64,000 nucleotides of DNA, from positions 2,662,868 through 2,726,867 of the forward strand of contig NZ_KB235914.1 of assembly GCF_000332175.1 (NCBI RefSeq), read 5' to 3'. Of the stretch, positions 6,458-10,784 are shown piece after piece. Numbering within the stretch: the stretch's first letter is position 1; every line of letters begins with the position of its first letter. A program made the translations under genes and the position numbers. Under the pieces are notes generated by a model that saw only the letters and a program-made list of their open reading frames with translations, did no database searches and was not told where the DNA came from. Origin of the DNA: Pseudanabaena sp. PCC 6802 (lineage in GTDB: Bacteria > Cyanobacteriota > Cyanobacteriia > Pseudanabaenales > Pseudanabaenaceae).

Positions 6458-8686
6458 ATGCTATTACAGTTTTTGTTAGATAAGGTCTCTACCAAAAAGG
6501 ATACTATCGATACCGAGACTATCGATCGAAAAATGACTGAGGTTCGTGACAATCGAGCAGCTAAGCCTTCTGGCAAAGTGTCGCTTGGTATCGTTCTTGT
6601 GGTGCCATTCGTAATTCAGATATTTGCGGCGGTGGGGCTGGTTGGCTATCTGTCGTGGCAGAGCGGCAGAAAAGCAGTTAACGAGCTATCAACCCAGTTG
6701 CGCGACGAAATTAGCAACCGGATTGAGACGCATACTCTCACATACCTCAATAAGGTGCAGGCGATCGCTCAGGTAGCAGTTGCGGCGATGGATAGTAACA
6801 ACGTCAATCCCGATGATTTTCACGCTTTAGAACGCTTTTTTTGGCAAATTGTCAGTCATAGAGAATTAGAGAATTATATCTACTATGCCAACACTAAGGG
6901 TCATTTCCTCGGTGTAGAACTAAGAGAAGACGGCAATTTCTATCTGGCAATTAAGAATGAGTCCACAGGACTAAATCGCAGAATTTATCAGCTCGACTCC
7001 CAAAACCGCAGAGTTAAAGTAGTTCGCACTCACAAGTTAGATCCGCGCGTCAGGCCCTGGTTCAAAAACGCGGTGGAAGCAGGTAAACCCACCTGGAGTC
7101 CCATCTATGGTTTTGCTTCCCGCAACCCTCCGCTCCTTGGGATCAGTCCAGTTATACCCGTTTACAATAAATCTAACGTTCTGCGCGGTGTCCTGAGTAT
7201 GGACATCAGACTGTCAGAGATTAGTGAGTTCCTGAGAACATTAGTTACCAGTCCCTCTGGGCAAAGCTTTATTATCGAGCGATCGGGGGATCTAGTTGCG
7301 AGTTCCAAAATCGAGCAGCCCTTTACAATCAAGGGAAATGGCAAAGATCGAACTGTCGAGCGGATCAAAGCAGTAAATAGCAACGAATCTATTGTGGCGG
7401 CTACGACCGATTACTTGCTGAAGACCTATGGCGATCTCAACAATATTTCAGATAGCATCAAGCTAGAGTTCAAGGACAGCGATAATAATCTGCAATTCGT
7501 GCACGTCAACCCTCTGCGCGACGGTCGGGGTATTGATTGGCTGATTGTGGTTGTCATCCCCGAGCGCGACTTTATGGAGCAGATCAATGCCAATACTCGC
7601 AACACCATACTGTTGTGTCTGGCAGCTCTGGCGATCGCGATCGCGCTCGGCGTGCTTACAGCTCGTTGGATCGTAAAACCAATTTTACGCCTGCGCGATG
7701 CCAGCCAGGCGATCGCCGCTGGCGAACTCGATCGCAAGGTAGAAGAGGTCAAGAGTATTGAAGAATTGGATGTTCTAGCGCGATCTTTCAATCAAATGGC
7801 CGGGCAACTGCAAGAGTCGTTCGATACTTTAGAAAAAGCAAACGCAGAGCTAGAAAATCGCGTTGCCGAACGCACCTCCGAACTTAGTAGAGCGAATCAG
7901 GAAATCACCATCCTCAACGAGCGCCTTAAAACTGAAAATTCGCGCATGAGCTCTGAATTGGAGGTAACTCGCCAACTGCAACAAATGATTTTGCCTAAGG
8001 ATGAGGAGTTACGACAGATTGAGGGTCTGGATATTGCCGGATTTATGGAACCCGCAGCCGAAGTAGGCGGCGACTACTACGACGTACTACAACATGATGG
8101 CAGGGTCAAGATTGGCATCGGCGACGTGACCGGTCACGGTCTGGAAAGCGGCGTAGTAATGATCATGGCTCAGACAGCCGTGCGAACTTTGCTCGCAGTC
8201 AACGAAAAAGATCCAGTTAAATTTATGAGCGCGCTCAACTACGCAATTTACGGCAACACGCGCCGCATGGAGTCATATAAGAACATGACCATTGCCCTGT
8301 TGGACTATGAGGCAGGTGTCCTGCGTCTTAGCGGCCAACACGAAGAATTGATTGTCGTACGCAATAATGGGGTTATAGAACAATTTGATACGATGAATTT
8401 GGGCTTCCCATTGGGCATCGAATCCGACATCTCGCAATTTATTGCAGAAACCAAGGTAGAACTCGATCCTGGCGAAATTGCCGTGCTATATACAGATGGT
8501 ATTACCGAAGCTGTAAATGGTAAGAACGAGCAATATGGGTTAGAGCGCATGTATGAGATTCTTAAGCAAAATCGCCACAAATCCGCCAACGAGATCCGGC
8601 AAGCCGTAATTGATGGCGTGATGGCGCATATTGGCACTCAAAAGGTTTTCGACGACATTACGTTACTTGTATTGAAGCAAAAGTAA
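6458..8686 (+). CDS. Membrane sensor serine phosphatase: Cache-HAMP-coiled coil-SpoIIE/PP2C
   Basis: A 742-residue sensor phosphatase. Residues about 45-67 form the first membrane helix (LGIVLVVPFVIQIFAAVGLV). A ~300-residue extracytoplasmic dCache-like domain follows, with VRPWFKNAVEAGKPTWSPIY. The second helix is at about 383-405 (TILLCLAALAIAIALGVLTA), then HAMP (ITARWIVKPILRLRDASQAI region) and a coiled coil ending near TRQLQQMILP. The SpoIIE-type PP2C domain has metal-binding EVGGDYYDVL, IGDVTGHGLESG and VLYTDGITEA. It should dephosphorylate a phosphorylated STAS protein in response to an external signal; a STAS protein is encoded 0.7 kb downstream. Alternative start: ATG at 6533 (MTEVRD), 25 codons in. 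Confidence 0.9.
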   Translation: MLLQFLLDKVSTKKDTIDTETIDRKMTEVRDNRAAKPSGKVSLGIVLVVPFVIQIFAAVGLVGYLSWQSGRKAVNELSTQLRDEISNRIETHTLTYLNKVQAIAQVAVAAMDSNNVNPDDFHALERFFWQIVSHRELENYIYYANTKGHFLGVELREDGNFYLAIKNESTGLNRRIYQLDSQNRRVKVVRTHKLDPRVRPWFKNAVEAGKPTWSPIYGFASRNPPLLGISPVIPVYNKSNVLRGVLSMDIRLSEISEFLRTLVTSPSGQSFIIERSGDLVASSKIEQPFTIKGNGKDRTVERIKAVNSNESIVAATTDYLLKTYGDLNNISDSIKLEFKDSDNNLQFVHVNPLRDGRGIDWLIVVVIPERDFMEQINANTRNTILLCLAALAIAIALGVLTARWIVKPILRLRDASQAIAAGELDRKVEEVKSIEELDVLARSFNQMAGQLQESFDTLEKANAELENRVAERTSELSRANQEITILNERLKTENSRMSSELEVTRQLQQMILPKDEELRQIEGLDIAGFMEPAAEVGGDYYDVLQHDGRVKIGIGDVTGHGLESGVVMIMAQTAVRTLLAVNEKDPVKFMSALNYAIYGNTRRMESYKNMTIALLDYEAGVLRLSGQHEELIVVRNNGVIEQFDTMNLGFPLGIESDISQFIAETKVELDPGEIAVLYTDGITEAVNGKNEQYGLERMYEILKQNRHKSANEIRQAVIDGVMAHIGTQKVFDDITLLVLKQK

Positions 8687-8717
8687 ATTAACAAGATCGT
8701 TCAACACATTCAAAATT

Positions 8718-9293
8718 ATGATGCAAATATTTGGCGAATTTATTGACGAACTACCAGTAAGCGAGGAGTACTTAACCATCCACTTTTCACCTGGCTCCAC
8801 TCCCCGTAAGAAGCGTTGGAGCAACTACGGGCTGTCGGCAGATTTCTTAGGTGACTACTTTGCTAATTTTTTCCCCGGCGACGATCTCCCCAATGGCAAC
8901 ATTGATAAAAGGGCAAACGTCAAAGGTGCAGTGAGCTATATAGCTAACGAGTTGCTAGAAAATACGATGAAATATAGCGACGAAAAAGCAAATCTTGCAG
9001 TCAGTATATCTTTGTATTTATATGACGAAAAACTCGTTTTTCGGGTGATCAATCCAGCCGAAGTGCATGTCGCTGAGGGATATAAAACCTTTGTGCAAGA
9101 ATTAATTAGCTCGGATGTTGATGAGATGTACTCTAAACAACTGGAACAAACAGCTTTAGGAATGGGAGGATCTCACATGGGAATCTTAACCATGATCAAC
9201 GACTATGATGCCAAAATGGGATGGAAATTCGATCCGCTACCTCAGCAGCCTGACGTAGTACAAGTTACGGTTATGGCTTACTTAAATCTATAG
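8718..9293 (+). CDS. GHKL-ATPase-fold protein (DUF6272-like), possible anti-sigma/switch kinase
   Basis: A 191-residue soluble protein. YIANELLENTMKYSDE resembles the N-box of GHKL/Bergerat ATPases (Glu and Asn for Mg-ATP binding), and LGMGGSHMGILTMINDY resembles a glycine-rich lid. The Walker-type N-terminal half is unlike classic RsbW, so it belongs to a divergent group seen next to PP2C and STAS genes in cyanobacteria. It lies between the PP2C phosphatase (31 bp upstream) and the STAS gene, so it is likely the kinase or binding partner of the switch. Kinase activity is inferred from fold and context, not shown. Confidence 0.7.
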   Translation: MMQIFGEFIDELPVSEEYLTIHFSPGSTPRKKRWSNYGLSADFLGDYFANFFPGDDLPNGNIDKRANVKGAVSYIANELLENTMKYSDEKANLAVSISLYLYDEKLVFRVINPAEVHVAEGYKTFVQELISSDVDEMYSKQLEQTALGMGGSHMGILTMINDYDAKMGWKFDPLPQQPDVVQVTVMAYLNL

Positions 9294-9410
9294 AAGACTG
9301 TAGTTACTTATTAATGGGAAACTGGGTATTGTATAGATCGAGTCCAGCGTTCGATCGTCGATCGGCAAGCTGTTTATATTATTCTCAAAATTTAAGGAGT
9401 CATTGTTAGC

Positions 9411-9752
9411 GTGGAAATTACAAATAAAGATTACAAAGTATGGTACGACGGAGAAAATGCCACGGTTTTCTTAAAGGGGTTCCTCAGACTTGATGGTATA
9501 GAAGAATATAAACCAATTATGAATTTGTTGATCGATGCCATAACTCAAGCATCAGATCTAACGATCGATCTCAAAGAGCTAGAGTTCCTCAACAGTTCTG
9601 GTATCAGCATGCTGTCTATGTTTGTGGTGGAGGTGCGTAACAGAGGTAGTGTTGAGATTACGTTACAAGGCTCTAATAAGGTATTGTGGCAAACTAAGTC
9701 ATTGCGAAATCTCCAACGTTTAATGCCAAATATGAAATTAGAATTTGTCTAA
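9411..9752 (+). CDS. STAS-domain protein (anti-anti-sigma-like)
   Basis: A 113-residue single STAS domain. LTIDLKELEFLNSSGISML is the phosphorylation loop, with serines at the position modified in SpoIIAA and RsbV. The start is GTG at 9411, preceded by AAGGAG with a 12-base gap. The gene stands 15 bp before the GGDEF gene, which suggests co-translation. In partner-switching systems the unphosphorylated STAS protein releases a target from its kinase; here the upstream PP2C protein would activate it. No sigma-factor gene is adjacent, so the output may instead be the neighbouring diguanylate cyclase (inference). Confidence 0.85.
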   Translation: MEITNKDYKVWYDGENATVFLKGFLRLDGIEEYKPIMNLLIDAITQASDLTIDLKELEFLNSSGISMLSMFVVEVRNRGSVEITLQGSNKVLWQTKSLRNLQRLMPNMKLEFV

Positions 9753-9767
9753 GATTAAGGAACGATC

Positions 9768-10784
9768 GTGGGAACTGAAACCTCAATCGATAATTATGAT
9801 AACGATCGGGCAGCTTCGACAAGCTGGCTGTGCGAGCAGGTTGAGAGATTGCAACGGGCTAATCGCGATCTACAAATTGCCCTGGAAACAACTGCCCTGC
9901 ATGGTGATGTGATTGAGGCTCAATTACAAGAGGTAAATCAGCAACTTCAGGCCGAAATTTTGCAGCGTCAACAGAAAGAGGCAATTCTACAGTCGATTTT
10001 AGAAATTGTCTCTCGGCAAAAGGCCGATTTAGAGGTAATTTTACAAACTACTGTCGAGCACAGCGACACTATTGAGGCTCAACTCTACGTACTTAACCAA
10101 CAACTCCAACATGAAGTTGGAGAGCGCAAACAGTCCGAGACCGCTCTACAATCTCTGCTGAAAATTCTTTCCAAGGAAAAAGATGACCTGGAAGCCATCA
10201 TGCGAACGATTATCGAGCATGGCGATGCAGTAGAAACGCACTGGTTTAATAAAGCCTTGGAAGCTAATCTCCTGGCAACGGTGGATGGTCTCACCCAGAT
10301 CGCTAATCGCCGTAAGTTTGATGAGTATTGCAACCGTCAGTGGCAACAGATGCTGGGCGATCGCACGCCACTCGCCCTAGTCATGTGCGATGTGGACTTC
10401 TTTAAAGACTACAACGATGCCTTCGGCCATTTAGCGGGGGATGATTGTCTGAGGCAGGTAGCTCTATCGATCGATCGCGTTCTCAACCGCCCTATGGATA
10501 TGGTAGCTCGGTTTGGCGGTGAAGAATTTGTCGTGGTCTTGCCACAAACTAGCGCGGCGGGGGCAATGAAAGTAGCCGAACTGATTCAAACCGAAATTGC
10601 CAATGCGAGGATAATACACCCGCGATCGCTGGTAAGCGACTACGTAACTTTAAGTATCGGCATTGTCAGTGTCGTACCAACTGAGAATCGCTCCCCTAAG
10701 GATCTAATTGACGAGGCAGATCAAGCACTTTACATTGCCAAGCAGCAAGGAAGAAACCGCATAATTTATCTATCCATGACCTGA
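9768..10784 (+). CDS. Diguanylate cyclase: coiled coil plus GGDEF
   Basis: A 338-residue cytoplasmic protein with GTG start at 9768. The N-terminal ~150 residues form a coiled coil made of internally similar stretches (ETTALHGDVIEAQLQEVNQQL, QTTVEHSDTIEAQLYVLNQQL and RTIIEHGDAVETHWFNKALE in part), about 70 residues apart. The GGDEF domain begins at DGLTQIANRRKFDEY; the active-site GGEEF is at residues 250-254. RPMD at 241-244 is exactly five residues upstream and matches the inhibitory c-di-GMP-binding I-site (RxxD). It should make c-di-GMP from GTP with product inhibition. It lacks its own sensor domain, consistent with control by the upstream switch proteins. Confidence 0.9.
   Translation: MGTETSIDNYDNDRAASTSWLCEQVERLQRANRDLQIALETTALHGDVIEAQLQEVNQQLQAEILQRQQKEAILQSILEIVSRQKADLEVILQTTVEHSDTIEAQLYVLNQQLQHEVGERKQSETALQSLLKILSKEKDDLEAIMRTIIEHGDAVETHWFNKALEANLLATVDGLTQIANRRKFDEYCNRQWQQMLGDRTPLALVMCDVDFFKDYNDAFGHLAGDDCLRQVALSIDRVLNRPMDMVARFGGEEFVVVLPQTSAAGAMKVAELIQTEIANARIIHPRSLVSDYVTLSIGIVSVVPTENRSPKDLIDEADQALYIAKQQGRNRIIYLSMT

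What the first reader, a model, noticed from the sequence alone, without database searches (positions are those of the whole stretch)
6458..10784. Compact partner-switch-to-c-di-GMP cluster: Cache-HAMP-PP2C, ATPase-fold protein, STAS, GGDEF
Seen: four same-strand genes in order, with the STAS gene only 15 bp before a GGDEF gene that lacks any sensor domain but has intact GGEEF and I-site RPMD. Known: PP2C/SpoIIE phosphatases and GHKL kinases control STAS proteins. Inference: the STAS protein or ATPase partner controls the diguanylate cyclase through its coiled coil, linking an external ligand to c-di-GMP rather than to a sigma factor.
Basis: partly seen in the sequence, partly recalled or inferred. 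Interest (0 to 1): 0.58.

Follow-up and report, generated by a model that had tools for sequence, protein, structure and literature searches.

The report
Phosphatase-kinase switch docking onto signalling enzymes
Four neighbouring genes of a cyanobacterium look like a distant cousin of a Pseudomonas biofilm switch, in which a small protein, toggled by phosphorylation, clips onto repeated docking sites of an enzyme that makes the signal molecule c-di-GMP; related cyanobacteria carry the same docking sites on quite different signalling enzymes.

Summary
In detail: four intact same-strand genes at the stated coordinates. The ATPase-like and STAS proteins belong to the cyanobacterial families slr1658 and slr1659, for which I found no assigned mechanism. 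Their predicted folds have SiaB and SiaC of Pseudomonas aeruginosa SiaABCD as best Foldseek matches in the PDB; curated SiaB, SiaC and SiaD sequence models are not met.

The new part is the DGC's "coiled coil": three copies of a 38-residue unit. Across cyanobacteria this unit caps diguanylate cyclases, class III nucleotide cyclases, histidine kinases and even a PP2C. It occurs in 42 of 53 genomes that have slr1659 over cut-off and in 0 of 333 others. Successive units are spaced 25, 46, 53, 60 or 67 residues, all 4 mod 7 (66 of 66).

Best explanation: the Cache-PP2C dephosphorylates the slr1659 protein (Ser62), which then docks on the units and assembles the active DGC dimer; the slr1658 kinase reverses this. 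Docking, phosphorylation and c-di-GMP output are inferred, not shown. Verdict: a new variant of a known kind, with a probable portable docking code.

The parts
6458..8686 (+). Membrane sensor phosphatase: dCache-HAMP-SpoIIE/PP2C (SiaA-like architecture)
   Evidence: Pfam; NCBIfam SiaA 111 bits, below its cut-off of 700
7655..7816 (+). HAMP domain (aa 400-453)
8096..8677 (+). SpoIIE/PP2C phosphatase domain (aa 547-740)
8718..9293 (+). slr1658-family GHKL kinase, SiaB-like fold; invariant N77, E78, L79, E81, N82
   Evidence: NF052618 and NF047703 over cut-off; alignment A1 of 43 rows; model pLDDT 91.2; top Foldseek hit SiaB 6kko_A, VIA Z 13.2
9411..9752 (+). slr1659-family STAS protein, SiaC-like fold; GTG start
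   Evidence: NF047705 over cut-off; alignment A2 of 50 rows; model pLDDT 95.7; top eight Foldseek hits all SiaC chains
9486..9488 (+). Codon of Arg26, subtype-marking residue in the beta3-alpha1 loop
9594..9596 (+). Codon of Ser62, predicted phosphosite in invariant N61-S62-S63-G64
   Evidence: equivalence to SiaC T68 inferred from the shared fold and the NTS/NSS motif
9768..10784 (+). Diguanylate cyclase without sensor domain: three docking units plus GGDEF; GTG start
   Evidence: GGDEF 173 bits; GGEEF and RPMD I-site read directly
9840..9953 (+). Docking unit 1
   Evidence: (59.5 bits)
9999..10109 (+). Docking unit 2, 53 residues on
   Evidence: (64 bits)
10158..10268 (+). Docking unit 3, 53 residues on, directly before GGDEF
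   Evidence: (58.3 bits)
10275..10760 (+). GGDEF catalytic domain (aa 170-331)

Best explanation
A SiaABCD-like partner switch built from the cyanobacterial families slr1658/slr1659. An external ligand acts on the Cache domain (ligand unknown) and through HAMP sets the PP2C domain. PP2C dephosphorylates the slr1659 STAS protein at Ser62. Unphosphorylated slr1659 protein docks on the three 38-residue units of the DGC stalk, one per unit per chain (a 2:6 complex, against 2:4 in SiaC-SiaD), and holds the stalks as a parallel dimer, so that the GGDEF domains make c-di-GMP, limited by the RxxD I-site. The slr1658 kinase phosphorylates Ser62 and releases the stalk. The unit is a portable address tag: relatives carry it on class III cyclases, histidine kinases and a PP2C. 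Shown here: genes, domains, predicted folds, unit repeats, register, genome-wide linkage. Inferred: all binding, phosphorylation, polarity, stoichiometry and c-di-GMP output.
For: Folds: slr1658 model's top Foldseek hit is SiaB (6kko_A, E 1.8e-5; VIA Z 13.2, tied with UsfX at 13.4); slr1659 model's top eight are all SiaC chains (VIA Z 12.6, RsfB close at 12.3). Units: 42 of 53 genomes with slr1659 over cut-off have a unit, 0 of 333 others; in the 94 genomes that gave no seeds, 5 of 6 against 0 of 88. In 10 of the 42 a unit protein lies far from the pair. Outputs: 21 unit proteins scanned with Pfam give 8 class III cyclases, 5 histidine kinases, 3 GGDEF, 3 PAS only, 1 HAMP (just under cut-off), 1 PP2C. 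Register: 66 of 66 intervals are 4 mod 7; the two SiaC sites of SiaD (S50, S82) are 32 apart, also 4 mod 7. Partner is slr1659 rather than slr1658. Subtypes: 40 of 43 genomes with an R26-type slr1659 have a unit, 8 of 9 with only other types lack it. R26, position 74 and R103/M105 lie in the beta3-alpha1 loop, alpha2 and the end of alpha3, the elements that touch SiaD in SiaC.
Against: No binding or phosphorylation was tested. Curated SiaB, SiaC and SiaD models are not met. 40 of 113 non-redundant slr1659 loci have no unit protein within four same-strand genes and 11 of 53 genomes have none at all; three of these (G091, G174, G229) have an R26-type slr1659. Unit seeds came from genes beside slr1659, so adjacency counts are partly circular; genomes are related, so P values overstate. 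R26 was chosen after seeing overlapping data. The unit profile found no SiaD or other convincing hit in PDB sequences, so the equivalence of unit and SiaD motif is by eye.
Confidence: 0.74

Rival explanations
1. The kinase (slr1658), not the STAS protein, binds the DGC stalk, and slr1659 phosphorylation only frees or traps the kinase, as described for Moorella thermoacetica MtT and the DGC MtG.
For: The Moorella precedent is mentioned in PMC7647112 (passage). slr1658 is adjacent in 105 of 113 loci.
Against: 6 of 117 unit proteins have slr1659 but no slr1658 beside them; the 2 with slr1658 alone carry a broken slr1659. Subtype residues that track the units are on slr1659; slr1658 was not examined in the same way.
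Confidence: 0.08
2. Same partners, opposite polarity: slr1659 protein inhibits, or the phosphorylated form is the one that docks.
For: Sequence cannot fix polarity; no call speaks for it directly.
Against: N61-S62-S63 matches the SiaC N67-T68-S69 that enters the SiaD interface and whose phosphorylation blocks binding; shared fold.
Confidence: 0.13
3. The switch controls a sigma factor, and the GGDEF gene is a passenger with an ordinary dimerising coiled coil.
For: STAS and GHKL folds also match SpoIIAA/AB, RsbV/W and UsfX/RsfB.
Against: The unit is in 0 of 333 genomes without slr1659 over cut-off and caps several enzyme types; polar residues D10 and H21 are invariant in 50 aligned units; intervals keep register 66 of 66.
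Confidence: 0.05

Closest known systems
SiaABCD of Pseudomonas aeruginosa (PP2C SiaA, kinase SiaB, DUF1987 protein SiaC, DGC SiaD)
   Same: Order phosphatase-kinase-STAS-like-DGC; HAMP-PP2C membrane phosphatase; SiaB and SiaC folds; DGC with no sensor domain and a stalk bearing repeated partner motifs; site spacing 4 mod 7 in both.
   Different: Sequence families differ (no DUF1987 match, SiaB and SiaD models under cut-off); 11-15% identity in the structural alignments; three units instead of two sites; by eye the charges look swapped (acidic unit, basic partner residues, against an Arg-rich SiaD stalk and acidic SiaC residues); the output enzyme varies among relatives.
slr1658 / slr1659 families (NF052618, NF047703, NF047705)
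   Same: Both proteins are members over cut-off. Disruption of slr1658 in Synechocystis impairs recovery from iron limitation and raises pgr5 (passages of PMC7555055).
   Different: No mechanism is given in the passages seen; Zer et al. 2018 itself is not held.
HmpU-HmpV-HmpW of Nostoc punctiforme; IcfG-Slr1861-Slr1856/Slr1859 of Synechocystis
   Same: Cyanobacterial PP2C-STAS-kinase switches (Hmp: passage; the make-up of the IcfG set is recalled).
   Different: No DGC target in the passages seen. Homology to this set was not tested.
HsbA-HsbD and BgrV-BgrR (STAS-controlled DGCs)
   Same: A STAS partner controls a DGC (as cited in PMC8457831).
   Different: Not compared by sequence here.

Membership tests
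slr1658 family (NF052618/NF047703) | Score over curated cut-off | tested here: met
   259 of 200 and 212.8 of 100 bits
slr1659 superfamily (NF047705) | Score over curated cut-off | tested here: met
   151 of 100 bits
SiaABCD | SiaA architecture: HAMP-PP2C phosphatase | tested here: met
   dCache-HAMP-SpoIIE
SiaABCD | SiaA equivalog model NF038263 | tested here: not met
   111 of 700 bits
SiaABCD | SiaB family kinase model NF038262 | tested here: not met
   14.8 of 85 bits; fold match to SiaB only
SiaABCD | SiaC DUF1987 sequence family | tested here: not met
   Not among Pfam hits at E up to 1; fold match to SiaC
SiaABCD | SiaD equivalog model NF038266 | tested here: not met
   126.5 of 290 bits over aa 77-332
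SiaABCD | DGC stalk with repeated partner-binding motifs | tested here: inconclusive
   Three repeats present; that they bind the STAS protein is untested
SiaABCD | Ser/Thr phosphorylation of the STAS-like protein by the kinase, removal by PP2C | not testable with these tools
   Residues present; needs biochemistry
Diguanylate cyclase (GGDEF) | GGDEF domain with GG(D/E)EF and RxxD I-site | tested here: met
   173 bits; GGEEF and RPMD read in the ORF; activity untested
Sigma-factor partner switch (SpoIIAA/AB, RsbV/W) | A cognate sigma factor as target | tested here: inconclusive
   None among the four genes; targets elsewhere not excluded

The most novel reading that the evidence does not exclude
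The 38-residue unit is a portable docking address: in cyanobacteria one phospho-switched STAS protein assembles diguanylate cyclases, class III nucleotide cyclases, histidine kinases and other outputs by clamping the same repeated coiled-coil tag in a fixed heptad register, including enzymes coded far from the switch, so that one sensor phosphatase can set several second messengers at once.
Probability: 0.55. Interest if true: 0.78.

Novelty: new variant of a known kind. Interest (0 to 1): 0.62.

Why it matters
It gives a testable mechanism to two widespread cyanobacterial families known here only by locus name, and may explain the slr1658 mutant phenotype of Synechocystis. It turns an unremarkable coiled coil into a readable tag that predicts, from sequence alone, which cyclases and kinases a partner switch controls. 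It would show that the SiaC-type clamp is not special to c-di-GMP.

Tried and rejected
Own-genome search for further stalk proteins found only this one. The unit profile against PDB sequences gave only chance-like hits, no SiaD, so the SiaD comparison rests on the paper's residue numbers. The promoter and terminator scan found no more than shuffles (7 against a mean of 8.9; 6 against 4.5), so operon status is not shown. A weak-unit scan of 40 unit-less loci found half-units on cyclases only in L034 and L038 (14.5 and 14.8 bits). Considered and dropped: Leptolyngbya Dgc2 as the same protein (it has CHASE2 and PAS). The loci with weak slr1659 matches (fetched as L064-L070) fell under the score filter and are not in its 113. 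The 3 cyclase+kinase hybrids rest on home-made profiles and were not checked with Pfam. Paper searches for a prior description; in their listings and the passages read I saw no report of slr1659 as a DGC partner or of this unit; subscription papers are mostly not held.
Full report
OBSERVATION. Domains: dCache-HAMP-SpoIIE; slr1658 family; slr1659 family; GGDEF. The DGC has GGEEF and an RPMD I-site five residues before it. slr1658 and slr1659 occur once in this genome, and the stalk occurs only in this DGC, so the pairing is unambiguous here.

FOLDS. The slr1658 model (43-row alignment, pLDDT 91.2) has as best Foldseek match among 350,542 PDB chains SiaB in the SiaB-SiaC complex, followed by SpoIIAB and UsfX. 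The second aligner ties UsfX (Z 13.4) and SiaB (Z 13.2, 155 aligned residues). N77, E78, L79, E81 and N82 are invariant in 43 rows; that E78 equals the predicted catalytic E61 of SiaB is my inference. The slr1659 model (50 rows, pLDDT 95.7) has eight SiaC chains as its top eight; in the second look SiaC leads (Z 12.6) with RsfB close (12.3). N61-S62-S63-G64 are invariant in 50 rows. These are SiaB/SiaC-like folds in different sequence families: the curated SiaA, SiaB, SiaC and SiaD models are not met.

THE UNIT. The stalk of the DGC holds three copies of a unit of 38 residues, consensus xxxLxQEKxDLEIxLETTxEHGDxxExQL, with D10 and H21 invariant in 50 aligned rows. Neighbours of slr1659 in other genomes have the same unit in front of other domains. 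Of 21 unit proteins scanned with Pfam: 8 class III cyclases (Guanylate_cyc), 5 histidine kinases (one with CHASE2, one with a receiver), 3 GGDEF (one GGDEF-EAL-GGDEF with the unit before the last GGDEF), 3 PAS only, 1 with a HAMP just under cut-off, 1 PP2C. By home-made profiles, 93 non-redundant unit proteins are 46 GGDEF, 25 cyclase, 8 kinase, 7 PAS only, 3 cyclase+kinase, 1 GGDEF+cyclase, 1 PP2C, 2 none.

LINKAGE. In 292 Cyanobacteriota genomes the unit was found in 37, all among the 47 with slr1659 over cut-off. In the larger draw of 386 it was 42 of 53 against 0 of 333 (Fisher P 2.5e-46). In the 94 genomes added by that draw, none of which gave seeds, it was 5 of 6 against 0 of 88 (P 1.1e-7); I take the 386 to contain the 292, as the handles listed agree. 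Genomes are related, so these P values are only indicative: of the five held-out unit genomes one is of a genus not in the first draw's list. Ten of the 42 genomes have a unit protein on another contig or roughly ten kilobases or more from the pair (G002, G005, G066, G070, G080, G118, G193, G207, G298, G346); those read are DGCs and histidine kinases, so the linkage is not operon inheritance alone. The G005 unit scored 38.6 bits but not in my ORF-based rescoring. Of 117 unit proteins in the 149 neighbourhoods, 109 have both slr1658 and slr1659 near, 6 slr1659 only, 2 slr1658 only; these 2 have a broken slr1659.

REGISTER. Intervals between the invariant His residues of successive units are 25 (3), 46 (1), 53 (53), 60 (8) and 67 (1): 66 of 66 are 4 mod 7. 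Many are shared by descent, but five different lengths that differ only by sevens fit a coiled coil whose docking faces must stay in line. SiaC sites on SiaD are at S50/Q54 and S82/Q86 (PMC8457831, section read), 32 apart, also 4 mod 7.

SUBTYPES. On a tree of 114 slr1658+slr1659 pairs the output state of unit-bearing loci needs 22 changes, and a starred clade of 13 loci has no unit beside it. That clade differs from 75 unit-linked rows most at R26 (R in 74 of 75; S in 12 of 13), positions 24 and 74, M105 and R103. In the model these lie at the end of beta3 and the beta3-alpha1 loop, in alpha2 and at the end of alpha3; SiaC touches SiaD with its beta3-alpha1 loop, alpha2 and alpha3. Of 52 slr1659 genomes typed (G298 not typed; G336 and G354 by one of three copies), 40 of 43 with an R26-type copy have a unit and 8 of 9 without lack it. 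The one exception, G255, keeps a decayed second slr1659 beside its unit-DGC. R26 was chosen on overlapping data, so this is a consistency check, not a clean test. The 3 R26-type genomes without a unit count against the reading.

MECHANISM. By analogy with SiaABCD, where unphosphorylated SiaC clamps two SiaD stalks 2:4 and phosphorylation at T68 blocks it (PMC8457831, sections read), I propose PP2C-on, kinase-off docking at three units per stalk, DGC dimer assembly and I-site feedback. The unit is acidic and the partner's tracked residues basic, the reverse of the Arg-rich SiaD stalk and acidic SiaC residues named; a charge-swapped interface is my inference.

CONSERVATION. The exact order PP2C, slr1658, slr1659, unit-GGDEF is seen in the window and, for example, in L148 (Richelia sinica), L172 and L182. 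The nearest rows on the tree carry both a unit-GGDEF and a unit-cyclase around the pair. In Synechocystis salina (L175) the order is unit-GGDEF, slr1658, slr1659; that slr1657 of Synechocystis PCC 6803 is the same DGC is inferred from locus order and was not seen.

PRIOR WORK. Papers naming slr1658 or slr1659 in the library: 4, read as passages only. PMC7647112 was read as passages, PMC8457831 as outline and three sections, PMC10581220 and PMC8256260 as passages; PMC12329169 gave no passage for the terms tried. None of what I saw links slr1659 to a DGC. The SiaD paper suggests that DUF1987 proteins in general modulate adjacent proteins, so the general idea has precedent.

VERDICT. A real, coherent cluster; it works like SiaABCD; it is not a member of its sequence families; the portable unit is the part worth a bench test.

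Noticed in passing
L171, L192: The slr1658-slr1659 pair occurs in Thiotrichaceae (Candidatus Parabeggiatoa and a MAG), inside the cyanobacterial tree, without a unit nearby: probable horizontal transfer.
   Followed up: partly
L193:5813-6976: In Nostoc sp. CHAB 5836 the unit sits on a soluble HAMP-PP2C phosphatase beside the pair, so the phosphatase itself may be tethered to its substrate.
   Followed up: partly
L034:10444-15945: The pair lies near an 1834-residue Ser/Thr kinase-AAA-GAF-PP2C protein; PP2C proteins of similar length occur in several other loci.
   Followed up: no
L045:6034-7824: In a unit-less subtype the pair is followed by a mechanosensitive channel gene (Pfam); L092 has similar-looking ORFs there.
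   Followed up: no
L064, L065: In other classes of the phylum, weak slr1658/slr1659 relatives sit before GGDEF proteins of about 560 residues in which my unit search found nothing.
   Followed up: no
L216:2922-5465: A GGDEF-EAL-GGDEF protein with the unit inserted before the second GGDEF.
   Followed up: partly
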